Shown here: positions 4,762-20,224 of the stretch, in pieces
Layout of the letters: the number at the start of each line of letters is the position of its first letter
Position numbering within the stretch: position 1 is the stretch's first letter
From: Pseudomonas sp. JQ170C
GTDB taxonomy: Bacteria > Pseudomonadota > Gammaproteobacteria > Pseudomonadales > Pseudomonadaceae
Direction of reading: 5' to 3'
Assembly: GCF_035581345.1 (NCBI RefSeq)
Contig: NZ_CP141608.1
Coordinates: 3,006,501-3,070,500, forward strand
DNA: 64,000 nucleotides
The notes under the pieces: model-generated
Told to the model about the DNA's origin: nothing
What the model saw: only the letters and a program-made list of their open reading frames with translations
Databases searched by the model: none
Translations under genes and position numbers: made by a program

Positions 4762-6201
4762 ATGAACAGCAATGCAAGCGTGTCCACCGGCGCCCTGGCG
4801 CCACCTGCAACCCGCAAGAAACTCGGCCTGACCGCCTTGTTGGCCGTGGCCATCGGCCTGGTCGTGTCCCAAGGGGTCATGGTGCTGATGCTGCAAGGCG
4901 TCGGTATCGCCGGCCCCGGCTTTATCGTGCCGCTGGCCCTGGCCTGGCTGTTGGCCCTGAGCTATGCCTGCTCGTTCTCCGAACTTGCGCTGATGATTCC
5001 CCGGGCCGGCAGCCTGAGCAGCTACACGGAAGTGGCGATCGGTCAGTTTCCGGCGATCCTTGCGACCTTCTCCGGCTACGTGGTGGTGGCAATGTTCGCG
5101 CTGTCGGCCGAGCTGCTGCTGATGGAGTTCATCATCGACAAGGTCTACCCGCACTCCATGCCGCCACTGACCGTGGCCCTGGGCGTGCTGGTGCTGTTCA
5201 CCGTGCTCAATCTGTTCAACATCGACATCTTCGCCAGGCTGCAGACCGTGCTGGCGGTGGTCATGGTAGTGGTGTTGCTGGTGATGGGCCTGAGCGCGAT
5301 GAACAGCGATATCGTCTCGCCCAATGCCAGCCTGTTCGAGGGCAGCAGCTGGAACCCGCTGGGCCTGGGGGTGATTGCGCTGACGGCCATGGCGGTGTGG
5401 GGCTTTGTCGGTGCCGAGTTCGTCTGCCCGCTGGTTGAGGAAACCCGTCGTCCGCAGCGCAATATTCCGGCCTCGATGATGATCGGCCTGACCGTGATCT
5501 TCGTGATCATCGCCCTGTACTGCCTGGGTGCCTTGCTCACCGTGCCCCAGGCGGAGCTGGCCAGCAGTGTGCTGCCGCATTATCTGTTCGCCACCACGGT
5601 GTTCGGCGAGGCCGGCAAGGTGTTCCTGGTTACCGCGGCGGTCACCGCCACGTGCAGCACCCTGAACAGTTCCCTGGCGGCCATCCCGCGCATGCTCCTG
5701 GGCATGGCCCGCAACGGCCAGGCATTCGGGGTGCTCAAGCGCGAGAGCAAGCGTACCGGCGCGCCCTGGGTCGCAGTGCTGTTCGTCTCGGCGATCACTG
5801 GCCTGCCGCTGCTGCTGATGCACGACCATCCCGATGCCATCAACCAGCTGCTGCTGGCGGCGGCACTGGCCTGGCTGCTGGCCTACATCATCACCCACGT
5901 CAACGTGATCGCCCTGCGCCGACGCTACCCAAAGGTCGCCCGGCCGTTTCGCACCCCGTTCTACCCACTGCCTCAAGTGGTCGGGATCGCCGGCATGCTC
6001 TTTGCGATCTGGCATGTCTCGCCGAGCCCGGAAATGACCTTCTCGATTTTTGCCTACGCAGGCCTGGTGCTGCTGGTGGTGTCGATCATCGCCGTGCTGT
6101 GGATCAAGTGTGTGATGGGCAAGCCGCTGTTCAAGCCTGAACCCCTGGAATGTGCATTGAGCACCGCCAACGATAAAAACCCGCAAGGAGACTCGCAATG
6201 A
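4762..6201 (+). CDS. APC-family amino acid/polyamine permease
   Basis: A 479-residue inner-membrane permease with about 12 hydrophobic segments. The N-terminal region after KKLGLTALLAVAIG is typical of the amino acid-polyamine-organocation superfamily. I chose the ATG at 4762 because GGAG sits 6 bases upstream. An ATG 12 bases earlier has no RBS. The last 4 bases overlap the next gene (ATGA). Together with the PotD-like protein encoded downstream, it would supply the substrate of this operon from outside the cell. Specificity is unknown, and the PuuC-like and SpuC-like neighbours make an amine or amino acid likely. Confidence 0.88.
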   Translation: MNSNASVSTGALAPPATRKKLGLTALLAVAIGLVVSQGVMVLMLQGVGIAGPGFIVPLALAWLLALSYACSFSELALMIPRAGSLSSYTEVAIGQFPAILATFSGYVVVAMFALSAELLLMEFIIDKVYPHSMPPLTVALGVLVLFTVLNLFNIDIFARLQTVLAVVMVVVLLVMGLSAMNSDIVSPNASLFEGSSWNPLGLGVIALTAMAVWGFVGAEFVCPLVEETRRPQRNIPASMMIGLTVIFVIIALYCLGALLTVPQAELASSVLPHYLFATTVFGEAGKVFLVTAAVTATCSTLNSSLAAIPRMLLGMARNGQAFGVLKRESKRTGAPWVAVLFVSAITGLPLLLMHDHPDAINQLLLAAALAWLLAYIITHVNVIALRRRYPKVARPFRTPFYPLPQVVGIAGMLFAIWHVSPSPEMTFSIFAYAGLVLLVVSIIAVLWIKCVMGKPLFKPEPLECALSTANDKNPQGDSQ

Positions 6202-7580
6202 CCGCTCAAGTGAAACCCGACCGCAGCACCGGCGATTACCAGGCCGCAGATGCCGCGCACCACATTCACGCGTTTCTCGACCAGAAGGCCCTGAACGAGG
6301 AAGGCCCGCGGGTGATCGTGCGCGGTGAGGGCCTGGCCCTGTGGGACAACGACGGCAAGCGCTACCTGGACGGCATGTCGGGCCTGTGGTGTACCAACCT
6401 CGGCTACGGTCGCAAGGACCTGGCTGCCGCGGCCAGCAAGCAGCTGGAGCAGTTGCCGTACTACAACATGTTCTTCCACACCACCCACCCGGCGGTGGTG
6501 GAGCTGTCGGAGCTGCTGTTCAGCCTGCTGCCAAGCCACTACAGCCACGCCATCTACACCAACTCCGGCTCCGAGGCCAACGAGGTGCTGATCCGTACCG
6601 TGCGTCGTTACTGGCAGATCGTCGGCAAGCCGCAGAAGAAGATCATGATCGGGCGCTGGAACGGCTACCACGGCTCGACGTTGGGCGCCACGGCCCTGGG
6701 CGGGATGAAGTTCATGCACGACATGGGCGGGGTAATCCCGGACGTTGCGCACATCGACGAACCCTACTGGTTCGCTCACGACGGTGATCTGACCCCGGCC
6801 GAGTTCGGCCTGCGTGCGGCGCGCCAGCTGGAGGAGAAAATCCTCGAGCTGGGCGCCGAAAACGTCGCCGCCTTTGTGGCCGAGCCGTTCCAGGGCGCGG
6901 GCGGCATGATCTTCCCGCCGGAAAGCTACTGGCCACAAATCCAGCGCATCTGCCGCCAGTACGATGTCCTGCTGTGCGCCGATGAGGTCATTGGTGGCTT
7001 TGGCCGCACCGGCGAGTGGTTCGCCCACCAGCACTTTGGTTTCGAGCCCGACACCCTGTCGATCGCCAAGGGCCTGACCAGCGGCTACATCCCCATGGGC
7101 GGGTTGATCCTGTCCAAGCGCATGGCCCAGGCGCTGGTGGAGCAGGGCGGGGTGTTTGCCCATGGCCTGACCTACTCCGGGCACCCGGTGGCCGCTGCGG
7201 TGGCCATCGCCAACCTCAAGGCGCTGCGCGACGAAGGCATCGTCACCCAGGTGAAGCAGGAGACCGGCCCTTATCTGCAGCGCTGCCTGCGCGAAGTGTT
7301 CGGCAATCACCCGCTGATTGGCGAAGTGCAGGGCACGGGCCTGGTGGCAGCGCTGCAATTTGCCGAAGACAAGGCCAGCCGCAAGCGCTTTGCCAACGAG
7401 AACGACATGGCCTGGCGTTGCCGCACCATTGGCTTTGAAGAGGGCCTGATCATCCGCTCGACCCTGGGCCGGATGATCATGGCGCCGGCCCTGGTGGCCA
7501 GCCATGCCGACATCGACGAACTGGTCGACAAGACCCGCCTTGCAGTAGATCGCACCGCCCGCGAATACGGTCGCCTTTAA
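6198..7580 (+). CDS. Class III PLP aminotransferase (SpuC-like, polyamine/beta-amino acid type)
   Basis: A 460-residue class III (omega) aminotransferase. The PLP lysine is Lys291 in SIAKGLTSGY. Asp262 in LLCADEVIGGFGRTG contacts the pyridine nitrogen, and NSGSEANE (122-129) binds the cofactor phosphate. The N-terminal part (HHIHAFLDQKAL, then LWDNDGKRYLDGMSGLWC) is characteristic of putrescine/spermidine:pyruvate aminotransferases and relatives. The start overlaps the permease stop by 4 bases (ATGA). It would convert a terminal amine to the aldehyde used by the dehydrogenase upstream. Confidence 0.92.
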   Translation: MTAQVKPDRSTGDYQAADAAHHIHAFLDQKALNEEGPRVIVRGEGLALWDNDGKRYLDGMSGLWCTNLGYGRKDLAAAASKQLEQLPYYNMFFHTTHPAVVELSELLFSLLPSHYSHAIYTNSGSEANEVLIRTVRRYWQIVGKPQKKIMIGRWNGYHGSTLGATALGGMKFMHDMGGVIPDVAHIDEPYWFAHDGDLTPAEFGLRAARQLEEKILELGAENVAAFVAEPFQGAGGMIFPPESYWPQIQRICRQYDVLLCADEVIGGFGRTGEWFAHQHFGFEPDTLSIAKGLTSGYIPMGGLILSKRMAQALVEQGGVFAHGLTYSGHPVAAAVAIANLKALRDEGIVTQVKQETGPYLQRCLREVFGNHPLIGEVQGTGLVAALQFAEDKASRKRFANENDMAWRCRTIGFEEGLIIRSTLGRMIMAPALVASHADIDELVDKTRLAVDRTAREYGRL

Positions 7581-7632
7581 CCCCCTGTGGCCGGTGCGCG
7601 CGGGCGTGCCGGTCGTTTCGAGGAACCGCTCC

Positions 7633-8673
7633 ATGTCCAGATCCTTGCGTTGCTGTGTTCCGTTCGCCCTGGCCCTGATCAGCACCGCCGCCTTGGCGAC
7701 GCCCCAGAGCCTCACCGTCATCTCCTTTGGCGGTGCCACCAAGCAGGCCCAGGACAAGGCCTACTTTCAACCCTTCAACGCCAGCGGCGCAGGACGCATC
7801 GTCGCCGGCGAGTACAACGGTGAGCTGTCGAAGATCAAAGCCATGGTCGATGTCGGCCATACCAGCTGGGACGTGGTCGAAGTCGAAAGCCCGGAGCTGC
7901 TGCGTGGCTGTGACGAAGGCCTGTTCGAGCGCCTGGACCCGGCACGCTTCGGCGACCCGGCGCGGTTCGTGCCGGGCACCTTGAGTGAGTGCGGGGTCGC
8001 CACTTACGTCTGGTCGATGGTCATGGCCTATGACCACGACAAGCTCGCCAAGGCCCCGAACTCCTGGGCCGACTTCTGGAACGTGGCCGAGTTTCCCGGC
8101 AAGCGCGGCTTGCGCAAGGGCGCCAAGTACACCCTGGAGATCGCCTTGCTGGCTGACGGGGTCAAGCCCGCCGAGCTGTACCAGGTACTCGCCACCCCCG
8201 AAGGTGTGAGCCGTGCGTTCGCCAAGCTTGACCAGATCAAGGGCAACATCCAGTGGTGGGAAGCCGGCGCGCAACCGGCGCAATGGCTGATTGCCGGCGA
8301 TGTGGTGATGAGCGCCGCCTACAACGGGCGTATTGCCTCGGCGCAAAAAGAGGGCATGAAACTGAGCATCGTCTGGCCGCAAAGCCTCTACGACCCCGAG
8401 TACTGGGCCGTGGTCAAGGGCACGCCGAACAAGGCGCTGGCAGAAGACTTCATTGCCTTCGCCAGCCAGCCGCAGACCCAGAAAGTGTTCTCTGAAGAAA
8501 TCCCCTACGGGCCGGTGCACCGCGAGGCCCTGGCCCTGCTGCCGACCGCCGTGCAGCAACAACTGCCCACGGCCGAGGCCAACCTTGCCGGGGCGAGGGC
8601 AGTGGATGCCGCGTTCTGGGTAGACCATGGCGAGGAGCTGGAGCAACGCTTCAACGCCTGGGCGGCCCGCTGA
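7633..8673 (+). CDS. Periplasmic polyamine-type ABC substrate-binding protein (PotD-like)
   Basis: A 346-residue secreted binding protein. The start at 7633 is chosen because AGGAA lies 8 bases upstream and the sequence then begins a normal Sec signal peptide (MSRSLRCC, hydrophobic core, cleavage near ALA-TP). The mature protein has the SBP_bac (PotD/PotF-like) pattern, including the VISFGG start and a WWEAGAQ motif. No ABC permease or ATPase genes follow it, so it must either use components encoded elsewhere or act with a non-ABC partner. It closes the operon: a hairpin follows directly. Confidence 0.85.
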   Translation: MSRSLRCCVPFALALISTAALATPQSLTVISFGGATKQAQDKAYFQPFNASGAGRIVAGEYNGELSKIKAMVDVGHTSWDVVEVESPELLRGCDEGLFERLDPARFGDPARFVPGTLSECGVATYVWSMVMAYDHDKLAKAPNSWADFWNVAEFPGKRGLRKGAKYTLEIALLADGVKPAELYQVLATPEGVSRAFAKLDQIKGNIQWWEAGAQPAQWLIAGDVVMSAAYNGRIASAQKEGMKLSIVWPQSLYDPEYWAVVKGTPNKALAEDFIAFASQPQTQKVFSEEIPYGPVHREALALLPTAVQQQLPTAEANLAGARAVDAAFWVDHGEELEQRFNAWAAR

Positions 8674-8690
8674 ACCCCCTGTAACGGGGG
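8674..8690 (+). terminator. Short GC-rich hairpin after the catabolic operon
   Basis: CCCCC, a five-base loop and GGGGG follow immediately after the stop of the binding-protein gene. There is no strong T-tract, so it may be a weak terminator or a 3'-end stabiliser. Confidence 0.45.
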
Positions 8691-8723
8691 CGTCCGTTGC
8701 ACGCCGCAGGCGTGGCGGTGGTT

Positions 8724-8749
8724 TTGCGCTCGCCTTTCGGCGGGCGCAA
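8724..8749. terminator. 11-bp stem hairpin between operon end and transporter gene
   Basis: TTGCGCTCGCC, loop TTTC, then GGCGGGCGCAA: an 11-bp stem with one T-G pair, nested inside a GGTGG/CCACC pairing. It lies in the 155-bp gap before the AspT-like gene and could act as a terminator on either strand. I see no other gene in this gap. Confidence 0.5.
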
Positions 8750-8828
8750 CAGCCACCGAAGGTGGAAATCTGACAAGCACAACCCCGTGAACTAGGCTGC
8801 TGACAGCTCCTGACAGGAAGCCTGCGCC

Positions 8829-10520
8829 ATGTTCGATTTTCTCTTGCACGCCTTGCGGTCGACACCGGAGATCGCGGTGTTCCTGGCCATTGCCCTGGGC
8901 GTCTTCATCGGTCGGATTCACCTGGGGAGCTTTCACTTGGGTTCGGTGGCGGGGGCGCTGTTGATGGGGCTGCTGATCGGCCAGATTGGCCTGGAGGTGC
9001 CCAGCGGGCTCAAGACGGTGTTTTTTGTACTGTTCATCTACGCCGTGGGCTTCAAGAGCGGCCCGGAGTTTTTCGGCAGCCTCAATCGCGGGACCCTCAA
9101 GCTGGTGCTGGTATCGGTCATGCTCTGTGCGACAGCCCTGGGCTGCATTCTGCTGATGGCCACCCTGTATGGCTTTGATGCAGGCTTTACCGCAGGGCTC
9201 GGCGCTGGCGCACTGACCGACACGGCGATCATGGGCACGGCCACCAGCGCCATCAATCAACTGGCCATCGACAGCGCGGCCAAGGCTCAGCTCAATAGCC
9301 ACATGGCCATTGCCTATGCCATCACCTACCTGTTCGGCACCATCGGCCTGATCGTGTTCGTCGGCACGGTGGCGCCGAAACTGCTCGGGGTCGACCTCAA
9401 GGCTTCGGCGCGGGAACTGGAACTGGCGCTGGGCATCGCCAATGACGAAGACGCAATCACGGTGCCCTATACCCGCATCGTGGTACGTGCCCACCGGGTG
9501 GTCGCAGGGGGTGAAGCCGATGGCGTGCGCATCGCCGATATCGAGGCCCGGCACCCGTCGTTGACGGTGGAGCGGATCGTACGTGCCGGCCAGGTCATCG
9601 ACCGCGATCCACAACTGACCTTGCTCGCCGGGGACATCGTTGGTGTGTATGCCCTGCGCGAAGCGGTCGGTACGCTGGCGTTGTGGATGGGGCCTGAGAT
9701 CGACCATCCCGAGTCGTTGTCGTTTCCCACCCGCCAGGTCGACATCGTGCTGACCGCGGCGCAATTCCACGGCAAGACCATTCACCAGGCCAAGGCACAA
9801 CTGGGCAACGTCCAGGGTTTGGGCTGCTTTGTTAACACAGTCACCCGCCAAGGCTATGAACTGCCGCTGTTGCCCAACACCGTACTGCGCCGTGGCGATG
9901 TGATTACCCTGACAGGGCGCACCGCCAGTGTCGAAGCCCTGGCCGAGCGACTGGGACGAATCAGGGAGAGCAGCTACAAGAGCGACATCGCCATGCACGG
10001 CCTGGGCATGGTTATGGGTTCGTTGCTGGGGCTGTTGTCGACCCATATCGGCATGATTCCGGTGGAGCTGGGGATCGGCGGCGGGGTGTTGGTCGCAGCG
10101 CTGGTCATTGGCTGGTACAACTCGCGCCATCCGGAAATCGGCGCCTTGCCGCCGGCGGCACAGTGGGCGTTCTCCGAGTTCGGCCTGACCGCCTTCGGTG
10201 CAGTGGTGGGGCTGTTGGCCGGCCCGGCCGCCATAGCGGCCATGAAGGAGCAGGGCATGGCGCTGCTGTTGTCAGGTGCCGTGGTGACCATCGTGCCGCC
10301 GTTGGTGGCGCTGTACTTTGGCCGCTACGTGCTGCGCCTGCACCCGATGATCCTGTTTGGCGCCTTGGCCGGTGCACAGACCGAAGCGGCGTCGATGAAC
10401 AAGATCATCGAGCAGTCCGGCAGCAATACGCCGGTTATCGGTTTCACTGTCTGCTATGCGATTTCCAACGTTCTGCTGGCGGTGTGCGGACCGATCATTG
10501 TCTATGTAGTGGCCGGGTAG
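8829..10520 (+). CDS. AspT/YidE-type aspartate:alanine exchanger family transporter
   Basis: A 563-residue membrane protein of the AAE family. It has two internally related membrane halves (about residues 10-175 and 385-560), each with the family's glycine-rich segments (GAGALTDTAIMG; GALAGAQTEAASMN). Between them lie soluble domains that look like two RCK_C/TrkA_C units (roughly 205-370). Family members exchange dicarboxylates or amino acids. It has its own leader, with a hairpin upstream, so it is probably transcribed separately from the catabolic operon. The substrate is unknown. Confidence 0.85.
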   Translation: MFDFLLHALRSTPEIAVFLAIALGVFIGRIHLGSFHLGSVAGALLMGLLIGQIGLEVPSGLKTVFFVLFIYAVGFKSGPEFFGSLNRGTLKLVLVSVMLCATALGCILLMATLYGFDAGFTAGLGAGALTDTAIMGTATSAINQLAIDSAAKAQLNSHMAIAYAITYLFGTIGLIVFVGTVAPKLLGVDLKASARELELALGIANDEDAITVPYTRIVVRAHRVVAGGEADGVRIADIEARHPSLTVERIVRAGQVIDRDPQLTLLAGDIVGVYALREAVGTLALWMGPEIDHPESLSFPTRQVDIVLTAAQFHGKTIHQAKAQLGNVQGLGCFVNTVTRQGYELPLLPNTVLRRGDVITLTGRTASVEALAERLGRIRESSYKSDIAMHGLGMVMGSLLGLLSTHIGMIPVELGIGGGVLVAALVIGWYNSRHPEIGALPPAAQWAFSEFGLTAFGAVVGLLAGPAAIAAMKEQGMALLLSGAVVTIVPPLVALYFGRYVLRLHPMILFGALAGAQTEAASMNKIIEQSGSNTPVIGFTVCYAISNVLLAVCGPIIVYVVAG

Positions 10521-10699
10521 CGGCTGTAGTTCTGGCTACACATAATGTTGAAACCAACTTGGCCTTGGATGCATTTATTCCTGGTTTATTGAACTGCCTT
10601 AGTGACTCGCCAAAGTAGCATTCAGAAATAATTGCTTACCTGCGTTGAGAAATATTTTTACTAGCCTCAGTGTCTTTCGCACAAGGAGGCGCATGCAAT
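10521..10699. other. Leader region of the radical-SAM operon
   Basis: A 179-bp non-coding stretch, more AT-rich than its surroundings. A strong RBS (AAGGAGG, 10683-10689) sits 10 bases before the ATG at 10700. No promoter could be placed with confidence. Confidence 0.5.
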
Positions 10700-11854
10700 A
10701 TGCCGATTTATAAACAGAGCATTAAGGGCGCCGGTCAATGGAATGACTGGCGCTGGCAACAGAAGAACGCTGTACGCGACGAACCTGCACTTAACGCGGC
10801 CTGCGGTGGTTGGAGCAAAGAAATCTCGGTGCATATTGAGCGCAACTTGCAAACGCGCAAGATGCAAATCACGCCGTACTACATTGATCTCATCATGCGT
10901 TCGCTCGATAACGGCCCGGTGACGGAGCATCCACTGTGGCAGCAGGTGGTGCCCTACTGGAGTGAAGCCGTAGCGGGTGACTACGACGGCACTTCCGAGA
11001 ATTGGGAATTGCACCATGAGATGAAGACGCCTATTTGCCAGCACAAGTACGACAACCGCGTCATCCTGCGCATGACCAATACCTGCAATGCCTATTGCCA
11101 GTTCTGTTTCGAGGCCCTGCGTACCTTGCAGGTCGATACCGGAAAAGCCAATGCCAACACCCGCTCATTCCTGGCATCGGTGGAGTACGTGCGCAATAAC
11201 CCGGCCATTGAAGAGGTGATTCTCAGCGGCGGCGACCCCCTGATGCTGGCTGACCGCAGGCTGGAAGAGAACCTGGCGGCCTTGCGCGGCGTCAGCGACG
11301 ACCTGCTGATTCGCATTCATTCGCGCGCCTTGAGCTTCAACCCGTTTCGCATCACCGATGAATTGGTGGCCATGTTGGAGAAGTACAAGGTCAACGCCTT
11401 TGGTGTTCATGTCTGCCATCCACTTGAACTGAGCGCTGAGTTTACCGCGGCGGTCAAACGTATTCAGCGTGTGGTACCGATTGTGTTTTCCAACATGCCG
11501 TTGTTGCGCGGCGTGAATGACGATGAGGAGACTTTGCACACACTGTTTATTGACCTTTATCGCCTGGGTGTAAAACCCTATTACCTGTACCACTTCATGC
11601 CGTTCTCGCCGGGTGCGTCGCAATACAAGGCATCGATCAGTCAGGCCATCGCCATCATGGATCGGCTTAAACGACGTGTGTCCAACATCGCCATGCCCGA
11701 ATATGTTCTACCCCACGCCCAGGGCAAGTTCACCGTGCCCTTGCTGGATTTTGACAAGCCTCAGGACTTGCCGCACTTTGAAGTTCGCGATGGACAGCGC
11801 CATTACCGTTTCCGGAACTGGCAAGGCCACTGGTGCAGTTGGCAGGACGCCTAA
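10700..11854 (+). CDS. KamA-family radical SAM aminomutase-like enzyme
   Basis: A 384-residue radical SAM protein related to lysine 2,3-aminomutase. The 4Fe-4S motif is Cys129-Cys133-Cys136 (CNAYCQFC), followed by the SAM-binding SGGDP (176-180). A C-terminal Gly-Lys (Lys343) aligns with the PLP lysine of lysine aminomutase. The two aspartates that recognise the lysine side chain in that enzyme appear to be missing: the matching segments read HFMPFSPG and VLPHAQGK. It may therefore act on another amino acid, or not be an aminomutase at all. I prefer the ATG at 10700 because AAGGAGG lies 10 bases upstream. It leads a four-gene operon with a ligase, a dioxygenase and an exporter. Confidence 0.85.
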   Translation: MPIYKQSIKGAGQWNDWRWQQKNAVRDEPALNAACGGWSKEISVHIERNLQTRKMQITPYYIDLIMRSLDNGPVTEHPLWQQVVPYWSEAVAGDYDGTSENWELHHEMKTPICQHKYDNRVILRMTNTCNAYCQFCFEALRTLQVDTGKANANTRSFLASVEYVRNNPAIEEVILSGGDPLMLADRRLEENLAALRGVSDDLLIRIHSRALSFNPFRITDELVAMLEKYKVNAFGVHVCHPLELSAEFTAAVKRIQRVVPIVFSNMPLLRGVNDDEETLHTLFIDLYRLGVKPYYLYHFMPFSPGASQYKASISQAIAIMDRLKRRVSNIAMPEYVLPHAQGKFTVPLLDFDKPQDLPHFEVRDGQRHYRFRNWQGHWCSWQDA

Positions 11855-11888
11855 ACTTACTTAATTACCGAAACAGGACGTTTTGATC

Positions 11889-13244
11889 ATGAAGCAGGAT
11901 GCCATTCTTTTTATTGATGTCGATGACAGTCCCCATGTTCGCTATCGCTACCGTGAACCGCACTTTGCAGCGGCCCGCGAACAGGACTTGGTGTGTTTGA
12001 CGGCAGCGGTGGCGGGGCGTCATCACCTGCAACGACTCTGGGATGATAGTGACGAGGTGTTCCTGCTCGAGTCGTTGAGCGAACTCGCCCTCCTGGGCCT
12101 GGTTGGCCGACTTGAGGGGGAGTACACCCTGCGGGCGATTTTCTGCCAGGCCGGACATTCGTCGACTCACGGGGACGTGGGGGGGATTGTGGCGCGGGCC
12201 TGTCAGCGGCTCGGCCTGGTTCACACCTGCCCCGAGGCCATTGCCGCCTGCAACAACAAGTTCCTGATGCGCCGTGTGCTGGACAAACAAGGGCTTCGCT
12301 CCGTGCCCTTCGCGCTGTGCAATGACGAACAGGCCCTCAAGGCGGGGGCTGAGCGGGTGGGATATCCGCTGATTGCCAAGCCGCCCTTTGGCGGTGCTTC
12401 CGCGTTTATCAAGAAGTGTTGCAACTGGGAAGAATTGCGCGGCCATTATGCGCATTTTCGCCGCGATCACGGCGCGGCCGTCCACGCGGACTTCTATGGC
12501 GTTGCACACACCCTGGCGGACGGGCACGCGAACGTTCCAGGCTGCAGCATGCTGCTGGAGGGATATATCCCGGGCATTGAAGGGAGTGTCGAGTGTGTGG
12601 TTGTCGGCCGGCAGGTCCATGCGCTGCTGATCAACGAAAAACTGATCCTCACAGAGCGCCGTGGCACGGTCCTTGAAAACCTGCTGATTTCGCCGCCGGC
12701 GTCCTTTACCGAGCAGCAGTGCAAGCAGATCCGCCAGTACGCCGTGGATTGCCTGCGCGCGGTTGGCCTGACCAACGCGGTGGTGCATTTCGAGTTCCGC
12801 ATGAGCGCCGAAGGCCCTGTGGCCATCGAGATCAACCCGCGCATGGGCGGGCTCTACGTCAATGCGGCGTTTCGTGACCTGGCCGCCATCGATCCCTACC
12901 AGCTGTACATCTCGGTATTGCTGGGCGAAGCGGGGATAGACGTGCAGCTCGTTGGCGCAGCGCAGAAGGTCGCCGCAGCGCAACAACGCTACTCGATGCT
13001 GGCGCTCTTTCCGCAACACAGCGGCCATTTCAAGGGTATTGAAGGCCTGGACTTCCTGGATCAGCACGCCTGTGTGCTGGAGTATGCCCAGCAGAACGCC
13101 GGCAGCTACATCGACGCGGATATCGAAGAGCACTACTTGCTCAAGTGCTGGGCCAAGGTCGACGATGCCGCACACGCCCATTCCCTGCATGATGCAATCA
13201 GGCAAAACCTGCGCGTCATCCTCGATAACCCGGCGGCAGGATAG
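11889..13244 (+). CDS. ATP-grasp carboxylate-amine ligase
   Basis: A 451-residue ATP-grasp protein. Visible elements are the lysine-containing NKFLMRRV (from 123), the small ATP loop in PLIAKPPFGGAS (160-171), LLEGYIPGIEGS (222-233), and the Mg-binding EINPRMGG (314-321) preceded by HFEFR. This layout is typical of L-amino acid ligases and related biosynthetic enzymes that join a carboxylate to an amine with ATP. The N-terminal third is the divergent pre-ATP-grasp domain. It follows the radical SAM gene by 34 bases and precedes the dioxygenase by 4. It probably makes an amide bond between the product of the radical SAM enzyme and another unit, which is inference. Confidence 0.85.
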   Translation: MKQDAILFIDVDDSPHVRYRYREPHFAAAREQDLVCLTAAVAGRHHLQRLWDDSDEVFLLESLSELALLGLVGRLEGEYTLRAIFCQAGHSSTHGDVGGIVARACQRLGLVHTCPEAIAACNNKFLMRRVLDKQGLRSVPFALCNDEQALKAGAERVGYPLIAKPPFGGASAFIKKCCNWEELRGHYAHFRRDHGAAVHADFYGVAHTLADGHANVPGCSMLLEGYIPGIEGSVECVVVGRQVHALLINEKLILTERRGTVLENLLISPPASFTEQQCKQIRQYAVDCLRAVGLTNAVVHFEFRMSAEGPVAIEINPRMGGLYVNAAFRDLAAIDPYQLYISVLLGEAGIDVQLVGAAQKVAAAQQRYSMLALFPQHSGHFKGIEGLDFLDQHACVLEYAQQNAGSYIDADIEEHYLLKCWAKVDDAAHAHSLHDAIRQNLRVILDNPAAG

Positions 13245-13248
13245 CGCG

Positions 13249-13974
13249 ATGGACGTCCAACAGATTTCGGCGCATTTGCGCGAGCATCACTATTGCCACA
13301 TCCGGGATTTTCGGGCGCTGGTGCCGATCGAGCCCGGTGAAGAGGACAGCTTTCGCGCGTATTGGTCAAACCTGGTGCGGGACGAGGCGTTCAAGGCGTA
13401 CACCCACCGCGAACGCCGTATCCTGCGCTATCGACTGTTGCCTTCACGGCAGCTGCAACTCGACAGGAATGCCGCGTTCGAGTCAGCCGTCACCTATGCC
13501 ATCACCTATCGCCAGGGTGTGAATCACTTGAGCTATTGCGAGGAGGGCTTTCTCTCGCATCCGCTGCTGCACCGGCTGCTGGCCACGGACCTTGCGGTGA
13601 TTGGCCCGCATCTGGGCAGGCAGGCTTATACGATTGATATCCACCTGTTCCGGGTCAGGGCAGATGCCCAGTCCAGCAGCCCGACCACCTCGGGGATTCA
13701 TCAGGATGGCCTGGACTGGGTATTTGCGCATTTCATTGGCGAGCACAATACGGTGCCGGTGGTTTCGGAGGTGTTTGCCAGTGAAACCGAACACAGTCGG
13801 GTATGGAACCTGGCGATGGGGCAGTTCCTCGAAACCCTGGTGATGAACGACCGCGAGATCTACCACCGCGGCAGTAATGTTCGCCCGCTGGACGATACGG
13901 CACCCGCCTGGCGCGATGTGTTGCTGGTGGGCCTGCGCAGCGTGGCACCTGACGCAGAGGCACAGCGTTCATGA
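13249..13974 (+). CDS. 2-oxoglutarate/Fe(II) dioxygenase, PF10014-type
   Basis: A 241-residue protein that I read as a 2OG-Fe dioxygenase of the family that includes amino acid hydroxylases such as isoleucine dioxygenase and BsmA. The iron triad is His151-x-Asp153 (GIHQDGLDW) with His206 (IYHRG). Arg212 is well placed to bind 2-oxoglutarate. I use the ATG at 13249, which has AGGA about 8 bases upstream. The open frame extends further back only by running through the ligase gene. The stop overlaps the exporter start (ATGA). It would hydroxylate, or otherwise oxidise, a free or ligated amino acid. Confidence 0.8.
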   Translation: MDVQQISAHLREHHYCHIRDFRALVPIEPGEEDSFRAYWSNLVRDEAFKAYTHRERRILRYRLLPSRQLQLDRNAAFESAVTYAITYRQGVNHLSYCEEGFLSHPLLHRLLATDLAVIGPHLGRQAYTIDIHLFRVRADAQSSSPTTSGIHQDGLDWVFAHFIGEHNTVPVVSEVFASETEHSRVWNLAMGQFLETLVMNDREIYHRGSNVRPLDDTAPAWRDVLLVGLRSVAPDAEAQRS

Positions 13975-15203
13975 GCCGCGATTCGCCGTTGGCCCGCTCG
14001 ACCCGCAACGCGCGCCTGATCATCATCGCCAGGGGGATTTCGGATTTTGGCGCGTTCCTCAACATGGTGGCGCTGTCCACCTATGTCTACTGGCTCAGCG
14101 AAAGCGTAGTGTTCGTCAGTCTCTTCCTGGCGTGTCGAGTCACTGGCGGGATTGTCGCCAGCCTGTTCGGCATTGCGTTTTTCCGGCGCTTTGCCGGGCG
14201 TGGCGCCCTGGCCGGCCTGGACCTGGCCAGGGCGCTGTTGTTGACGCCGCTGCTGGTGCTGATACCGGCGCATCAGCTCAGCATCCTGCCCTTCATCGCC
14301 TTTGGGATTGGCCTGTGCAATTCGCTGTTTGCCATTGGTATCAACAGCCAGTTACCCACCTGGGTCGCGCTTGAGCAGCGGGTGAGCACCAATGCGTGGA
14401 TTACCTCTGCCGCCGCCACCGGCGCGGTGTTCGGCAGCTTGCTGTCGGGGGTGCTGATCGCAACGGCGGGGTTTGAAGGGGTGTTCACCGCCAACATTGC
14501 CACCTACGTGCTGGCCGCCGGCTTGATCTTGCCGTTGCGCGGGTTGTACTCGGTCGCCGTTGCTGCGCATCGGGGCCTGGCTGCCGAGTGGCACGAACTG
14601 AGAACAGGACTGCGCGGCGCGCCGGTGCTGGCGGCCATGTTGCTGGTCAGCATGCTCGACACCCTGGGTAGCGCCGCCCATAACGTCGGGTGGCCCGTGC
14701 TGTCCCAGTACATTTCTCCGGACACGGCGAAAACGGTGATGGGTTACTTACTGGCGGTGTGGGCCTGTGGCAAGTTCGTCGGTGCACGCCTGGCCAGTGC
14801 GGTATTGAACCGGGGTGGCACGCACCGCATGGAACGCGTGTTCATGCTTGGTGTGGCGCTGATGTCCAGCGGCTTCATTCTGACCTTTCAACAAACCGAG
14901 TTGTGGCTGGCACTGGTGTTGGTCGTGTGGGCGGGCCTGGGGGATGGTCTGTCCGAGGTGGCCCTGGTCTCCCGGGCGCAGAGTGAGCCCGATAGCCTGC
15001 GCCTGCCACTGTTCAGTCTGCTGACCCTGATCCAGATGGCCGGCTTCGGCGTGGGGATGCTCCTTGTAGGACCGTTCTATGTGGCGTGGCCCCCGGCCCA
15101 GGTGATTGTCGTGTTCCATGGCTTGCCGTTGGCCGCACTGGTCATCATGGCGCTGTGGATCAAAAGGCTGCCGACTGGCGTGGGGGCGTGGAAGAAATAT
15201 TGA
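13971..15203 (+). CDS. MFS efflux transporter (EntS/MFS_3-like)
   Basis: A 410-residue membrane protein with about 12 hydrophobic segments and the layout of small MFS exporters of the enterobactin-exporter type. A long loop follows segment 6. The start overlaps the dioxygenase stop by 4 bases, so it is the fourth coupled member of the operon. In this setting it most likely exports the product made by the three enzymes upstream, and it may also give self-protection. The next gene is convergent and 77 bp away. Confidence 0.85.
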   Translation: MSRDSPLARSTRNARLIIIARGISDFGAFLNMVALSTYVYWLSESVVFVSLFLACRVTGGIVASLFGIAFFRRFAGRGALAGLDLARALLLTPLLVLIPAHQLSILPFIAFGIGLCNSLFAIGINSQLPTWVALEQRVSTNAWITSAAATGAVFGSLLSGVLIATAGFEGVFTANIATYVLAAGLILPLRGLYSVAVAAHRGLAAEWHELRTGLRGAPVLAAMLLVSMLDTLGSAAHNVGWPVLSQYISPDTAKTVMGYLLAVWACGKFVGARLASAVLNRGGTHRMERVFMLGVALMSSGFILTFQQTELWLALVLVVWAGLGDGLSEVALVSRAQSEPDSLRLPLFSLLTLIQMAGFGVGMLLVGPFYVAWPPAQVIVVFHGLPLAALVIMALWIKRLPTGVGAWKKY

Positions 15204-15280
15204 GCTCGACAAAGGAGATGTGTTCAGAGGGGTGTTGCACGGGCAGCCCCCCCCGGAACGCTTTGCTTTGCAGGGTTGAA

Positions 15281-17638
15281 TCACCAGTCCACGGCGTAGC
15301 TCAGTGCCAGGCGACGTCCTTCGGCATGGGGGTAGGGCGCTGCGGCGTTGGCCTGCATGTAGAGCGTCTGGTAGTTGCGATCACTGAGGTTGTAGACCCC
15401 CATTTCCAGCTTGCCGACCGGCAGCGCCACTCCCGCCAGCAGGTCGACGGTGGTGTAGCCTTCGATCTTGCGGCCATTGCCATCGTTGAAGCCGTCGTCA
15501 TAGCTTTCAAGGCGCATGGCTTGCAGGCGCAAGTTGTAGTCATCGTTATCAAAGGCGACGAAGGCGGTGGTCTTGGCCGGCGAGATACGCGTGGCTGGCA
15601 GATCCAGCCATTCGCCGTTCTGATGGGTCTGGCCCTTGGTCCAGGCGTAGGTGCCGCCCAGCGACCAGGCGCTGTCCAGGTGGTAGGTCAGGCTGGTCTC
15701 GACCCCGCGCACGCGCTCCTTCTGGTCGATCAGGCGCTGGGCACGGGTGACCGAATCGTAGTACTGGGTGATGTCCGAGCGGTTCTCGAACACGGTGACG
15801 TTGGCCTGCAACGCCTCCCAGTCACCGCGCCAGCCCACCTCATAGCTGTCGACTTTGATGGCCTGGGCATTGAGGTCCTGAATGTCGTAGCTGCCGCGTA
15901 CATCGCGCAGGAATCGCTGGATGTCGGGCAGCGAGAAGCCCTGGCTGAAATTGACGAACACATCCTGGGTCGTGCTCAGGTGGTACACCGCACCCAGGTT
16001 GTAGAGGGTGTCTTCGTACTTCAGGGTGCCACCGGGCAACACCTCGGAAACACCCGCCTGCCAGATGCCGCCGAACGCTACGCTATCGTCCACATCGCTA
16101 TGAATCCACTCGTGCCGGGCACCGCCGCGCAAGGTCCAGTCGCCGACTTCCCAGGTTGATTGAGCGAACAGCGCGGTGGTGTTGGTTTCGATGTCCGGAC
16201 CGAACGCATAGGTCTGGCCGGTGGGGGTGTAGACCAGGCCATCGACGCTGTAGCGATCACCGTCCTGGCTGACCTGTTCGTTCTCGAAGTCCGCCCCCCA
16301 GACCAGGCTGCCGCTGGCGCTGCCGATGCTTGGCAGGCTGCTTTGCACGGCAGCGCGCAGGCCATACACCCGCGCTTCGCTCTCGGAGGCGACCACCCCG
16401 GCATTGCTACCCCAGTTGTACGGGAAAAACCGCGCCTGCTGCTTGCGCCAGTAGCTCTCCAGCAGCAGTTCCTGGCCGAACAAGTCGTTGTCGCTGTAGT
16501 TGAAGTTCACCGCCTGGTTGTGGGTGAAGGGCTGGTCGCTCAGTTGCAGGCCTTTGATCGCCACCGACTCACCATTGCGGGTGCCGGCCACATAGCCGGT
16601 GTCCTGCTTGTCTTCGTACTCCTGCAGGGCGAGGGTCATGCGGCGCTGGTCGTTGAGGTCGTAGCCGAACTTGGCATGCAGGTCATGGCTCTCGGTGTCC
16701 ATGTTGCTGCCCTGGAAGGCCTCCTGGGGGATGCGCTTGCCATTGCCGTCGAACTGGTCGTTACGCTGTACGAGGTCTGCCGAGAGGTACCAGTCCAGTG
16801 CATCCTGGCGGCCGGTCACACTCTGGAAGCCTTCGTAGGCGAAGCCCTTGTGGTTGAAATTGTCGGCGCTGCTGATGCCCGCGCGGCTGCTGAACGCCAG
16901 CGCCTGGCCATCGTTGCGCTTGGTGATGATGTTGATGATGCCCCCCGAGGCTCCGGCGCCATACAGGCTGCTAGCCCCCGATACCACCTCGATGCGCTCG
17001 ATGCTCGAAGGCGCGACGCTGTTGAGTTGGCGCGACACATCGCGGCTGGCGTTTTGCGAGACGCCGTCGATCAACACCAGCACGGAGCGCCCGCGCAGGG
17101 TCTGGCCGTAGTTGCTCATGGTCCCGGAGGAGGGGGCCAGGCCCGGTACCAGGGTGCCCAGAATATCGGCGACCTTGCGCCCGGCGGCAGACTGCTGGGC
17201 AATCTGCGGCGCCTGTATCACCTGCACCGTGCCCGGGATCGAGGCGATGCTGGCTTCGCTGCGCGAGGCAGTGACCAGGGTTTCAGACAGCGCCATCGGG
17301 GCGCTGCCCAGATCGACTACGGGTGCCGGTTGCACAACGATGCTGTTTGGCCCGCTCAGGCGCCACTGCAGACCGCTGCCCTGGAGCAAGGCATCGAGCG
17401 CACGCCCGGCGCTGTAGTCACCCTGCAATGCAGGCGCCGATTTGCCGCGCAGCAACGTGGCATCAACACCGATGGCAAGCCCGGTGCGGGTGGCCAGTGC
17501 GGTCAGGGCGCTGGCCAGCGATTGGCTGGCCAGCTCGAAGTGGTAGGTGGTCTGGACGCTATCGGCAAAGGCCGGTGCGGCGCAGGCCAGGGCCAGTGCC
17601 AGGGCGCTGTGGCGAAACAATTGAGCAGTGGTGGTCAT
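15281..17638 (-). CDS. TonB-dependent siderophore receptor with STN signalling domain (IutA-like barrel)
   Basis: A 785-residue outer-membrane receptor. It has a Sec signal peptide (MTTTAQLF, cleavage near AFA-DS), then an STN domain (about 30-105) that signals to an anti-sigma factor, then a plug. The plug contains LIDGVSQN and SLYGAGASGGIINI, and a 22-strand barrel ends in an aromatic residue (Trp). The plug and barrel resemble the aerobactin receptor IutA, for example in NYGQTLRGR and DVSRQLNS. E. coli IutA has no STN domain, so this is a transducing version. With the fecI- and fecR-like genes just upstream it forms a cell-surface signalling system. A hydroxamate/carboxylate siderophore is a reasonable guess for the ligand. 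Confidence 0.88.
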   Translation of the reverse strand: MTTTAQLFRHSALALALACAAPAFADSVQTTYHFELASQSLASALTALATRTGLAIGVDATLLRGKSAPALQGDYSAGRALDALLQGSGLQWRLSGPNSIVVQPAPVVDLGSAPMALSETLVTASRSEASIASIPGTVQVIQAPQIAQQSAAGRKVADILGTLVPGLAPSSGTMSNYGQTLRGRSVLVLIDGVSQNASRDVSRQLNSVAPSSIERIEVVSGASSLYGAGASGGIINIITKRNDGQALAFSSRAGISSADNFNHKGFAYEGFQSVTGRQDALDWYLSADLVQRNDQFDGNGKRIPQEAFQGSNMDTESHDLHAKFGYDLNDQRRMTLALQEYEDKQDTGYVAGTRNGESVAIKGLQLSDQPFTHNQAVNFNYSDNDLFGQELLLESYWRKQQARFFPYNWGSNAGVVASESEARVYGLRAAVQSSLPSIGSASGSLVWGADFENEQVSQDGDRYSVDGLVYTPTGQTYAFGPDIETNTTALFAQSTWEVGDWTLRGGARHEWIHSDVDDSVAFGGIWQAGVSEVLPGGTLKYEDTLYNLGAVYHLSTTQDVFVNFSQGFSLPDIQRFLRDVRGSYDIQDLNAQAIKVDSYEVGWRGDWEALQANVTVFENRSDITQYYDSVTRAQRLIDQKERVRGVETSLTYHLDSAWSLGGTYAWTKGQTHQNGEWLDLPATRISPAKTTAFVAFDNDDYNLRLQAMRLESYDDGFNDGNGRKIEGYTTVDLLAGVALPVGKLEMGVYNLSDRNYQTLYMQANAAAPYPHAEGRRLALSYAVDW

Positions 17639-17720
17639 CGGTAGAGCCTGTGCAATCGACTGTATTTACTTCAATGACCGGGCTGCAAAAGAATCGGGCA
17701 GTCGATTCGGATGTTTTTTT

Positions 17721-18254
17721 TCAACGTGGCCGCACGTTCACCAGGTAGCGGCTGTAGACGTCGACGCGGATCGGCAGCGTTGCCTGCAACAACGCCAAGG
17801 CGGCGTCGGTATCCTGCAGCGGCAGCACGCCGGTGAAGCGCAAGCCTTGCAACGAGGCCGCGTCGCTCCAGATCAAGCCGGGGCGGTGGCGGTCCAGTTC
17901 GCCCAGCACTTCGGGCAGTGGACGGTCATGAAACACCGCCTGCGCGGCGGGCGCCGCAATGGGCGCGGGTTGGCTGTTTCCGAACTCCAGCGGCAGGAAC
18001 TGTACCGCCGCAATGGCGACCGGCAACGCCAGGGCAAGGCCGATGGCCACGATGGGCCGTGAGCGTCTTTGCGTGGGTGGCGAGACGGCCTGCCAGAGTT
18101 GCTGCAACTGCTGGTAAACCTGCCCGTGACGACTGTCGGCCTCGCACCAGGTGCGAAACTGCGCCAGGTCTTCCGGCGTCGGGCGCTCGTCCAGGCACAC
18201 CAGCCATTGGGCTGCCTGGTCGCGAATGGTGTCCAGGGGCCGGGCCTCAGTCAT
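17721..18254 (-). CDS. FecR-like anti-sigma factor lacking the central domain
   Basis: A 177-residue FecR relative. Typical FecR proteins have roughly 320 residues. The N-terminal cytoplasmic anti-sigma segment is present (about 5-57, with RDQAAQWLVCLDE and WCEADSRHG), as are one membrane segment (about 68-87) and the C-terminal STN-like domain (about 105-174, FHDRPLPEVLGELD). The beta-rich FecR domain normally found between them is missing. The frame is intact and compact, so this looks like a short functional form rather than a broken gene. The ATG at 18254 overlaps the sigma-factor stop by 8 bases. Confidence 0.82.
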   Translation of the reverse strand: MTEARPLDTIRDQAAQWLVCLDERPTPEDLAQFRTWCEADSRHGQVYQQLQQLWQAVSPPTQRRSRPIVAIGLALALPVAIAAVQFLPLEFGNSQPAPIAAPAAQAVFHDRPLPEVLGELDRHRPGLIWSDAASLQGLRFTGVLPLQDTDAALALLQATLPIRVDVYSRYLVNVRPR

Positions 18255-18780
18255 GCGTAAACCCTTCAGGCATGGCATCGAACAGGCGCGCATGAAAGTG
18301 CGCCAGCGCCTTGGCCAGGTACTGCTTCACGCTGCTTTCCGAGACCTGCAAGTGGCGGGCGATTTCGCTGTAGGCGCAGCCATCGACCCGCGCCATGAGG
18401 AAGGCCGTGCGGGGCTTTTCATCGAGCTCTTCAAGCAGCAACAGCAGGACTTTACCCAGCAATTGGCGCACCGCAACGATCTGCTCCGGGCCTTGCTGGG
18501 TGGTTTGTTCCATCAGCACCGCCATGCTGCGCAAGGTTTCATCCTCGACCCGGCGCCGGTGGTACTGATTGATCAACAAGCGGTTGGCCGCCACCAGGAG
18601 AAACGCCCGGGGCTCCTTGAGTGCAGGCAGATGCTCAAGGCCCAGCAGTTTGACAAAGGTGTCCTGGGTCAGGTCGGCGGCATTGTCGGGACAACCCAGC
18701 TTCTTGCGCAGCCAGCCGACCAGCCAGCCGTGATGGCGCTGATAAAGCTCGGAAAGAGGGGATACGGGCTGGCCCGGCAC
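18247..18780 (-). CDS. ECF sigma factor, FecI-like
   Basis: A 177-residue iron-starvation-type ECF sigma factor. Region 2 contains DLTQDTFVKLL, and region 4 contains the HTH (YSEIARHLQVSESSVKQYLAKAL). I use a GTG start at 18780, with GAGG about 7 bases upstream. This gives the usual FecI length, while the longer open frame adds a non-homologous N-terminus. It overlaps the fecR-like gene by 8 bases and should direct transcription of the receptor gene when the ligand is bound. Iron control through Fur is expected, but I could not place a convincing Fur box upstream. Confidence 0.88.
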   Translation of the reverse strand: MPGQPVSPLSELYQRHHGWLVGWLRKKLGCPDNAADLTQDTFVKLLGLEHLPALKEPRAFLLVAANRLLINQYHRRRVEDETLRSMAVLMEQTTQQGPEQIVAVRQLLGKVLLLLLEELDEKPRTAFLMARVDGCAYSEIARHLQVSESSVKQYLAKALAHFHARLFDAMPEGFTHD

Positions 18781-18884
18781 GACAAGACCTCGAGCGAAGA
18801 CAAATCTAAATGGGAAGCTGATGCGGTTGCGAATGCTGTCATGTCGGGGCGGGGCAGGCAAGGGGGGTGATGATCTGGTGTGTT

Positions 18885-18956
18885 CGCGGGGGACCCATGA
18901 AAGCGGTGGGCGCTGGCATGCCGGCCATGAGGCCGGTACACCCAGCGTGCCCCGCG
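18885..18956. terminator. Large nested hairpin downstream of the OprD gene
   Basis: Three nested inverted repeats lie between the porin stop (18962) and the fecI start. They are CGCGGGG/CCCCGCG (outer), CGCTGG/CCAGCG (middle) and GCCGGCC-ATGA-GGCCGGT (inner). The element directly follows the porin gene on its strand and is probably its transcription end or a REP-like element. Confidence 0.6.
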
Positions 18957-18961
18957 ACTGC

Positions 18962-20224
18962 TCAGTAGCTGATCGTGTACCGCAGGATCAAACGGTTTTC
19001 GTTGGCGCTGTCGGCATAGGTGGAGCGGTTGGTGGAGTTGCGCCATTGCAGCGAAAGCCCTTTGACCGGGCCGCTCTGGACCACGTAGGTGATGTCGGTC
19101 ATGCGCTCCCACTCCTTGCCGTCTTCCCCTGTGGCGCGAAGACCGGCGGCCTGTGAGGTGTTGACCATGGTCGGATCGACGTCCTCGCCCTTGGCGTATT
19201 TCACCCCCAGGGTCAGGCCGGGAACACCCAGCGTGACGAAGTCGAAGTCGTAGCGGGCGAACCAGACGCGCTCATTGGCAGCGGTGAAGGTACTGACCAG
19301 GGACTCGGCAAACAGGTAAGTGTCGGTGCCGTTGACGAATGCAAACGGGGTATCGCCCCAGGCCTTCTGGTAACCGCCGCCCAAGGTGTGGCCCTTTAGG
19401 CTATAGGCCAGGTAACTGCTCAAGGTCCGGTTGTCGACTTCGCCCAGGCGTTTGTCACCGGTCTCGTTGGCATCGAACAGGCGTATATCGGTAATGAGGG
19501 TACCGACCGACAGGGGTTGGTTGAGTTTCAGGCCGGCGTAGTTGTTGCGGTACAGGTCTTCAAGCTCGGCGACGTGATAGCTCAGGGTCAGGGTCGGCAG
19601 CGCTTTGTAGTCGAAGGCCAGGTAGTTGTAGTAGTCCGCTTCCACCGGCGCGTAGGCCGTGGCGGTGAGGGACTCGAAGTCGGTGGAGTTGCGCTGCTTG
19701 ACCTTGCTGATGCGCAGCGCCGAGAAGGTCAGCCCGGACAGGTCGTTGGACACCAGGCTACCGCCGCGAAACACCTGGGGCAGCAGGCGGCTGTTGTTGC
19801 TTGCGAGCAATGGCATGACCGGGTTGATGCCGCCGATACGCAGCTCGCTTTTGCCCATGCGCGCCTTGGCGGTCACGGTCATCTTGCTGTATTCGTCCTC
19901 GACGTTGCGCTCGGAGTCATAGGCCAGCAGGCCTGAGCCGGTGCGGTCGGGACTGGAGTCGAGCTTCACCCCCAGCAGGCCCAGGGCATCGACACCAAAA
20001 CCGACCGTCCCTTCGGTAAAGCCCGATTGCAGGTTGAGGATGAAGCCCTGGCCCCATTCATCGCGCTTGTTCTGGCGTGCATCGTCGTTGCGAAAGTCGC
20101 GGTTGTAGTAGAAGTTGCGCAATTCAAGGCTTGCCTTTGCGTCATGGACAAAGTCCGCCAGTGCCACAGGGGTTTGCGTGGCAACAGCCGTGGCGAGCAG
20201 CAGCTTCACAGGGTGTTTCGACAT
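18962..20224 (-). CDS. OprD-family outer-membrane porin
   Basis: A 420-residue substrate-specific porin. The signal peptide (MSKHPVKL, cleavage near ALA-DF) is followed by the OprD-family opening ([13 protein letters not shown]), and the C-terminus ends in the TISY-type aromatic strand. The start at 20224 has AAAGG 8 bases upstream and overlaps the nitroreductase stop by one base (TAATG), so the two genes are coupled. The [12 protein letters not shown] and [17 protein letters not shown] blocks are typical of the family. Members import basic amino acids or aromatic and other carboxylates. The aromatic-acid transporter in the same cluster points to an organic acid. Confidence 0.9.

What the first reader, a model, noticed from the sequence alone, without database searches (positions are those of the whole stretch)
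10700..15203. Four-gene biosynthetic operon: KamA-like radical SAM, ATP-grasp ligase, 2OG-Fe dioxygenase, exporter
The four genes are tightly coupled (gaps of 34 and 4 bases, then an ATGA overlap). They combine an amino acid-modifying radical enzyme, an amide-forming ligase, an amino acid-type hydroxylase and an MFS exporter. That is a complete minimal route to a small modified dipeptide or amino acid product, with no NRPS or RiPP precursor. I do not know a described pathway with this exact set. It is the best candidate for an undescribed system in this window. Product and bioactivity are inference.
Basis: partly seen in the sequence, partly recalled or inferred. Interest (0 to 1): 0.85.

Follow-up and report, generated by a model that had tools for sequence, protein, structure and literature searches.

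The report
Stand-alone pboFGHI-like peptide-making operon
Four adjacent Pseudomonas genes look like a compact assembly line for a small exported peptide; the same kind of set was described in 2021 inside a larger toxin-related cluster whose product is unknown, and its radical enzyme has an unusual active site.

Summary
In detail: four intact, tightly coupled genes (gaps 34, 4, then a 4-base overlap) encode a KamA-family radical SAM enzyme, an L-amino-acid-ligase-type ATP-grasp enzyme, a PF10014 2-oxoglutarate dioxygenase and an MFS transporter. They travel together: of 36 loci with this type of radical enzyme, 34 carry all four in the same order, across Pseudomonas, Xenorhabdus, Dickeya, Burkholderia, Rhodobacteraceae and others. 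The claim that the set is undescribed is wrong: pboF-G-H-I of the Pbo cluster of P. syringae pv. phaseolicola (PMC8473136) has the same families, order and junctions, in an operon needed for phaseolotoxin production; its product is unknown. Here the set stands alone, without NRPS/PKS neighbours. What looks new is the radical enzyme: a separate KamA clade (49 rows, one long branch, 100/100) where two residues constant in 40 other KamA rows (lysine 2,3-aminomutase Arg134 and Asp293) are Glu and Met in all 49. So it is unlikely to be a lysine or arginine 2,3-aminomutase. Most likely it makes a modified amino acid that is ligated into a dipeptide, oxidised and exported. Substrate, order of steps and product are inference.

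The parts
10700..11854 (+). KamA-family radical SAM enzyme, 384 aa, divergent clade (pboF-like)
   Evidence: (2a5h lysine 2,3-aminomutase E 3e-45)
11084..11125 (+). CX3CX2C cluster motif and clade signature CNAYCQFCFEALRT (Glu138 at the position of lysine 2,3-aminomutase Arg134)
   Evidence: E in 49 of 49 clade rows, R in 40 of 40 others; E in 22 of 22 rows found without any motif pattern
11726..11728 (+). Lys343, probable pyridoxal-phosphate lysine
   Evidence: aligned with the PLP lysine (invariant column); it falls two columns away but is invariant in 49 of 49; same spacing after the YV pair as in arginine 2,3-aminomutase L129
11889..13244 (+). ATP-grasp ligase, 451 aa, L-amino-acid-ligase fold (pboG-like)
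13249..13974 (+). 2-oxoglutarate/Fe(II) dioxygenase, PF10014, 241 aa (pboH-like)
13699..13914 (+). Stretch holding the probable iron and 2OG ligands His151-x-Asp153, His206, Arg222
   Evidence: invariant in 25 of 25 rows of A5; assignment to roles is recalled from the family pattern
13971..15203 (+). MFS transporter, 410 aa (pboI-like), probable exporter
   Evidence: TIGR00900 78 bits and EntS 39.6 bits, both below their cut-offs of 319.6 and 324

Best explanation
A stand-alone version of the pboFGHI gene set. The radical SAM/PLP enzyme changes an amino acid by radical chemistry (most likely moving or rearranging an amino group, on a substrate other than lysine or arginine bound in the usual way). 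The ATP-grasp ligase joins that residue to a second amino acid. The PF10014 dioxygenase oxidises a C-H bond of the free amino acid or of the dipeptide. The MFS protein exports the product, which acts outside the cell as an antimetabolite or signal. Shown: gene structure, families, predicted folds, conserved catalytic residues, co-conservation, homology to KamA and the replacement of residues that are constant in other KamA rows. Inferred: substrates, order of the steps, dipeptide product, export direction and biological role.
Against: No enzyme of the set has been assayed as far as I saw. The residues at the Arg134 and Asp293 positions are changed, so even the amino-shift chemistry is uncertain. 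A fold match shows no substrate. The PLP-lysine match is off by two residues in one of two alignments. In P. syringae the set works together with NRPS/PKS genes, so a stand-alone product is not certain. The sequence of pboFGHI was not held, so identity to it was not measured. The operon is rare: 1 of 369 genomes sampled over the class, the window's own.
Confidence: 0.58

Rival explanations
1. The four genes are one arm of a larger pathway: NRPS/PKS genes elsewhere in the genome complete the product, as in the Pbo cluster, and the end product is a regulatory signal.
For: In P. syringae pv. phaseolicola pboF-I sit in one operon behind pboA-E (NRPS, ketosynthase, carrier protein among them); the authors favour a regulatory, signal-like metabolite.
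Against: None of eight flanking window genes is NRPS/PKS. In 8 of the 34 complete loci (L046, L059, L061, L069, L074, L075, L084, L087) and in G770, one to four flanking ORFs each were scanned; none was NRPS or PKS, one 1035-aa ORF in G770 had no Pfam match. Genes elsewhere in the genomes were not searched.
Confidence: 0.2
2. The radical enzyme works after the ligase, on the N-terminal residue of a dipeptide, as a peptide aminomutase. This would explain why the residue thought to hold a free carboxylate (Arg134 position) is lost.
For: Arg at that position in 40 of 40 other KamA rows, Glu in 49 of 49 clade rows.
Against: In the sister clade 7 of 13 gene sets hold an AzlC-type protein (amino acid export family) and no recognised ligase, which fits a free amino acid product better.
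Confidence: 0.1
3. An ordinary lysine or arginine 2,3-aminomutase feeding beta-lysine or beta-arginine into a dipeptide.
For: Best family scores are arginine (213.8 bits), lysine (200.4) and glutamate (197.8) 2,3-aminomutase; CX3CX2C and a PLP-lysine candidate are kept.
Against: Scores are far below the cut-offs (600, 525.4, 650). Positions of Arg134, Asp293 and Asp330 are E, M and P; the last is variable in other KamA rows too.
Confidence: 0.07
4. A small iron-carrier pathway: EntS-like exporter beside a TonB receptor with FecR/FecI-type regulators.
For: Window 15281-18861 holds a TonB receptor with an STN domain, a FecR-type protein (DUF4880) and an ECF sigma factor on the other strand; EntS model 39.6 bits.
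Against: The EntS score is far below its cut-off of 324. In the nearest relative L046 the ORF list shows a 423-aa ORF (the size of the window's OprD porin, not scanned in L046) next to the operon and no receptor-sized ORF there. None of the four enzymes supplies a usual iron-binding group (recalled knowledge).
Confidence: 0.04

Closest known systems
pboF-pboG-pboH-pboI of the Pbo cluster, P. syringae pv. phaseolicola NPS3121/1448A (PMC8473136)
   Same: Same four families in the same order; Phyre2 templates lysine 2,3-aminomutase, B. licheniformis L-amino acid ligase (our top fold match 3vot), isoleucine 4-hydroxylase and an MFS symporter; same 4-nt gap between ligase and dioxygenase genes and overlapping stop/start of dioxygenase and MFS genes (against 99).
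   Different: There it is part of 16 genes with NRPS/PKS functions in a genomic island and needed for phaseolotoxin; here it stands alone. Protein identity to pboFGHI could not be measured.
Hil operon (Pantoea ananatis, P. syringae, Xenorhabdus nematophila; PMC3684760)
   Same: PF10014 dioxygenase, and in some bacteria a PF13535 ligase and an MFS exporter; proposed dipeptide antibiotic (passages).
   Different: Its core genes hilA (PF13640), hilC (short-chain dehydrogenase), hilR and hilP are not among the genes scanned here, and the passages list no radical SAM gene for Hil.
Bacilysin operon (BacD ligase, BacE exporter)
   Same: Dipeptide made by an ATP-grasp L-amino acid ligase and exported (as told in PMC3684760).
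   Different: Other modifying enzymes; only fold-level similarity of the ligase (18% identity).
KamA family: lysine 2,3-aminomutase, arginine 2,3-aminomutase BlsG, EpmB
   Same: CX3CX2C, GG motif, PLP-lysine candidate, 28-33% identity.
   Different: A separate clade on a branch of 2.72 changes per column (100/100) with positions constant in the other rows replaced.
Mangotoxin operon mboABCDEF (PMC13185094)
   Same: Pseudomonas peptide toxin built by ATP-grasp ligases and an oxidase, without NRPS (passages).
   Different: The oxidase is a heme-oxygenase-like diiron enzyme and there are two ligases; no radical SAM or PF10014 gene in the passages seen.

Membership tests
KamA-family radical SAM/PLP enzymes | CX3CX2C radical SAM cluster motif | tested here: met
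   C129, C133, C136 in all rows
KamA-family radical SAM/PLP enzymes | Conserved PLP lysine (Lys337 of lysine 2,3-aminomutase) | tested here: inconclusive
   Lys343 invariant in the clade and aligned with it; two columns off
KamA-family radical SAM/PLP enzymes | NCBIfam TIGR00238 above cut-off 199.2 | tested here: not met
   197.4 bits; of six clade relatives scored, L061 (205.5) and L069 (200.3) pass, four do not
Lysine 2,3-aminomutase (TIGR03820) | Equivalog cut-off 525.4 bits; Arg134, Asp293, Asp330 (roles recalled: substrate carboxylate and side-chain amine) | tested here: not met
   200.4 bits; positions are E138, M300, P338
Arginine 2,3-aminomutase BlsG (TIGR04468) | Equivalog cut-off 600 bits | tested here: not met
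   213.8 bits; members L129 615.9 and L041 634.6
L-amino acid ligases (BacD/BL00235 type) | ATP-grasp fold closest to solved L-amino acid ligases | tested here: met
L-amino acid ligases (BacD/BL00235 type) | Forms a peptide bond between two amino acids with ATP to ADP | not testable with these tools
   needs an enzyme assay
PF10014 2OG dioxygenases | Pfam score above cut-off and HxD...H iron ligands | tested here: met
   119.9 bits, cut-off 23.1; H151, D153, H206 invariant
Pbo cluster | pboF-G-H-I order and junctions | tested here: met
   same order; 4-nt gap and overlap
Pbo cluster | Accompanying NRPS/PKS genes among pboA-E and pboK-P | tested here: not met
   none among eight flanking genes scanned at 4723-20233; only two ORFs of 750 aa or more in the window. 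The rest of the genome was not searched
Pbo cluster | Protein-level orthology to PSPPH_4554-4557 | not testable with these tools
   sequence not held; one of the two pboG primers gave a single one-mismatch hit in 398 Pseudomonas genomes, in G738, which is not among the 22 with the radical enzyme
Hil operon | Core hilR-hilP-hilA-hilB-hilC | tested here: not met
   only the PF10014 gene has a counterpart among the genes scanned

The most novel reading that the evidence does not exclude
The clade with the signature CxxYCQFC[FY]EALRT is a new radical SAM/PLP enzyme type whose reaction is not a 2,3-amino shift on a free alpha-amino acid, and the four-gene set is a minimal, horizontally spread, NRPS-free route to a new class of oxidised dipeptide that is also the unknown core product behind the Pbo cluster.
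Probability: 0.35. Interest if true: 0.78.

Novelty: new variant of a known kind. Interest (0 to 1): 0.5.

Why it matters
The product of the Pbo cluster, required for phaseolotoxin production in a bean pathogen, was unknown in the 2021 paper, and that cluster has 16 genes. A four-gene stand-alone version in other Pseudomonas, Xenorhabdus, Dickeya and more distant bacteria makes the chemistry of this part testable in a simple host. The radical enzyme suggests that the KamA scaffold has been re-equipped for a different substrate, and its sister clade in other gene sets points to a wider unexplored enzyme group.

Tried and rejected
Iron-carrier idea: dropped, because the TonB/FecR/FecI genes beside the operon are not seen in the ORF list of its nearest relative. 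Furanomycin, FVG and mangotoxin: leads from listings and, for mangotoxin, passages; set aside. Promoter and terminator scan (0 and 2 sites, below the shuffle means of 1.4 and 4.5) and Rfam scan (0 matches) gave nothing. Viral contigs: 22 pattern matches, none a relative. Phages: only distant KamA proteins (19 records, under 60% identity). Plasmids: distant proteins except one Burkholderia cenocepacia replicon with the radical enzyme at 67.9% and the ligase at 49.4% side by side. Whole operon DNA against plasmids: no match. MFS against solved structures: no match. Papers on Arg134/Asp293/Asp330: none found, so those roles are recalled; the residue numbers do match the 2a5h sequence printed.

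Counts, biases and dropped rows: one search gave 49 loci; 13 are class 2 (L078-L083, L085, L086, L088, L089, L091, L093, L094) and 36 class 1. Of the 36, L066 stops at a contig end just after the radical gene and L092 shows a split radical gene with a dioxygenase but no ligase match; L051 (dioxygenase) and L076 (radical/ligase junction) look damaged though all four genes are recognised. In L073, L077, L084 and L087 the MFS is only 22-27% identical. The scan selects for the peptides ICQHKYD or CNAYCQF, so conservation inside them is partly by construction; Glu138, Arg141, Met300, Pro338 and Lys343 lie outside them. In the 22 rows, found without such patterns, all five residues are kept in 22 of 22, including one row with neither peptide. 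Tree and residue counts used 49 clade rows and 40 others (30 best TIGR00238 hits, L041-L044, L129-L134; weaker hits were not fetched). Left out were L032, L033-L040 and L095 (duplicates), L092 (split) and L094 (open frame of only 177 aa).

Results against my reading: in a sample over the class, 1 of 369 genomes has the radical enzyme at E 1e-65, the window's own. Within the genus 22 of 398 genomes have it, 16 class 1 and 6 class 2 by identity and neighbours. In those 16 the ligase is adjacent in all and the start of the dioxygenase is seen in 15; G770 was completed. All four genes were seen in 11 of the 16; for five (G715, G760, G801, G811, G825) the fetched loci end before the MFS. The class-2 protein that I first took for an ATP-grasp enzyme has no Pfam match and only 49% hhalign probability, so it is called probable only.
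Full report
What is there. The window lies in a 5.94 Mb genome, Pseudomonas by its nearest named relatives. At 10700-15203 on the + strand are four intact genes: a radical SAM enzyme, an ATP-grasp enzyme, a PF10014 2OG dioxygenase and an MFS transporter. The gaps are 34, 4 and -4 bases. The genome has no second strong KamA-family match (one other, 20.6 bits) and no other PF10014 match.

Is it a unit? A scan of the genome collection with the radical enzyme's alignment gave 49 loci. Two kinds emerged. In class 1 (36 loci) the ligase, dioxygenase and MFS genes follow in the same order in 34; the other two are a contig end (L066) and a damaged or partial locus (L092). Class 1 covers 16 Pseudomonas loci, 10 Xenorhabdus, 2 Dickeya, one Enterobacteriaceae metagenome genome, Burkholderia anthina, a Neisseriaceae and a Thiotrichales genome, three Rhodobacteraceae/Paracoccaceae genomes and a Pseudovibrio contig. 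In class 2 (13 loci) the radical enzyme is 46-52% identical to ours. A divergent MocR-type gene was matched in 12 of 13; a 2-hydroxyacid dehydrogenase and an aminotransferase in 13 of 13; an AzlC-type gene in 7 and an MFS gene with a probable ATP-grasp-like protein in 6 (families). Within Pseudomonas, 22 of 398 genomes have the enzyme, 16 class 1 and 6 class 2; in a sample over the class, only the own genome of 369. The operon is rare and patchy but keeps its four genes together, which fits a horizontally moved accessory pathway (inference). dN/dS ratios between the window and three relatives are well below one in all four genes.

The radical enzyme. It aligns with lysine 2,3-aminomutase 2a5h over 337 residues, but every specific NCBIfam aminomutase model scores far under its cut-off. 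In a tree of 89 rows the 49 clade rows sit together on one branch of 2.72 changes per column with support 100/100 (midpoint root, and the tool warns of long-branch joins among the other rows). In an alignment of 49 clade rows and 40 other KamA rows the position of lysine 2,3-aminomutase Arg134 is Glu in 49 of 49 and Arg in 40 of 40; that of Asp293 is Met in 49 of 49 and Asp in 40 of 40; that of Asp330 is Pro in 48 of 49 and varies in the others (E 18, D 14, T 7, C 1). The clade rows were picked by two short peptides, neither of which holds these positions, and a pattern-free set agrees in 22 of 22. I recall, without a call to support it, that Arg134 holds the substrate carboxylate and Asp293 and Asp330 its side-chain amine. 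The cluster cysteines are universal. Lys343 is invariant in the clade and aligns with the PLP lysine, with the same spacing as in the arginine enzyme; it falls two columns away, so the PLP lysine is probable and not proven. The reading: same scaffold and cofactors, different substrate.

What is known. The decisive paper is PMC8473136 (I read parts 1-3 of 6 of the text and the figures-and-tables section). The Pbo cluster of P. syringae pv. phaseolicola has 16 genes. Its pboF, G, H and I are a lysine-2,3-aminomutase-like radical SAM protein, an L-amino-acid-ligase-like ATP-grasp protein, an isoleucine-hydroxylase-like dioxygenase and an MFS protein; pboH starts four nucleotides after pboG stops and pboI overlaps pboH. 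The four polar mutants made in that operon, pboG among them, lose phaseolotoxin. The authors propose an unknown, perhaps signalling, metabolite. So the gene set is described and its product was not known. The window's operon is the same set without the NRPS/PKS partners. I could not compare sequences: I found no such locus in the data held. One pboG primer was not in any of the 158 loci, 18 pbo primers had at least four mismatches in five loci, and the other pboG primer gave one one-mismatch hit in 398 Pseudomonas genomes, in a genome without the radical enzyme. The Hil operon paper (PMC3684760; passages and abstract) gives the closest worked-out logic: PF10014 hydroxylation, a PF13535 ligase and an MFS exporter, with a proposed dipeptide antibiotic. 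Of PMC13185094 and PMC13336071 I saw passages. Subscription journals are mostly outside that library.

Most likely mechanism. A modified amino acid from the radical enzyme is ligated into a dipeptide, oxidised by the dioxygenase as the free amino acid or as the dipeptide, and exported. I give this 0.58. The main rivals are a larger NRPS-dependent pathway (0.2) and a radical enzyme acting on the dipeptide (0.1).

Verdict. A real, co-conserved biosynthetic operon; the set is known as pboFGHI; new, as far as I could search, are its stand-alone spread over several genera and the distinct KamA clade. New variant of a known kind, interest 0.5.

Noticed in passing
L041-L044 (four unnamed Pseudomonas genomes); L041 4346-14302: Cluster in L041: arginine 2,3-aminomutase, asparagine-synthase-like protein, TauD-type and Asp/Asn-hydroxylase-type oxygenases, MATE exporter, AraC-type regulator nearby, and an ATP-grasp gene related to the window's (Pfam of that one scanned in L043). 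L042-L044 were seen only to hold the ligase and aminomutase relatives.
   Followed up: partly
L078-L083, L085, L086, L088, L089, L091, L093, L094: Sister clade of the radical enzyme in other gene sets: 2-hydroxyacid dehydrogenase, aminotransferase, and an AzlC-type gene (7 of 13) or MFS with a probable ATP-grasp-like protein without Pfam match (6 of 13), with a divergent MocR-type regulator in 12 of 13.
   Followed up: partly
L084 8706-17312: A Paracoccaceae version with a second ligase-dioxygenase pair and a methyltransferase behind the four genes and a TauD-type oxygenase gene before them.
   Followed up: no
window 15281-18861: TonB receptor with STN domain, FecR-type protein (DUF4880) and ECF sigma factor on the - strand just after the operon.
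   Followed up: partly
L059 4778-9352: A 1524-aa protein with a dermonecrotic-toxin N-terminal domain (ToxA_N) lies upstream of the operon in P. fluorescens PS918.
   Followed up: no
L129, L130: Arginine 2,3-aminomutase genes beside NRPS and/or PKS, TauD-type dioxygenase and aminotransferase genes on plasmids of Azospirillum argentinense and Xenorhabdus bovienii.
   Followed up: no
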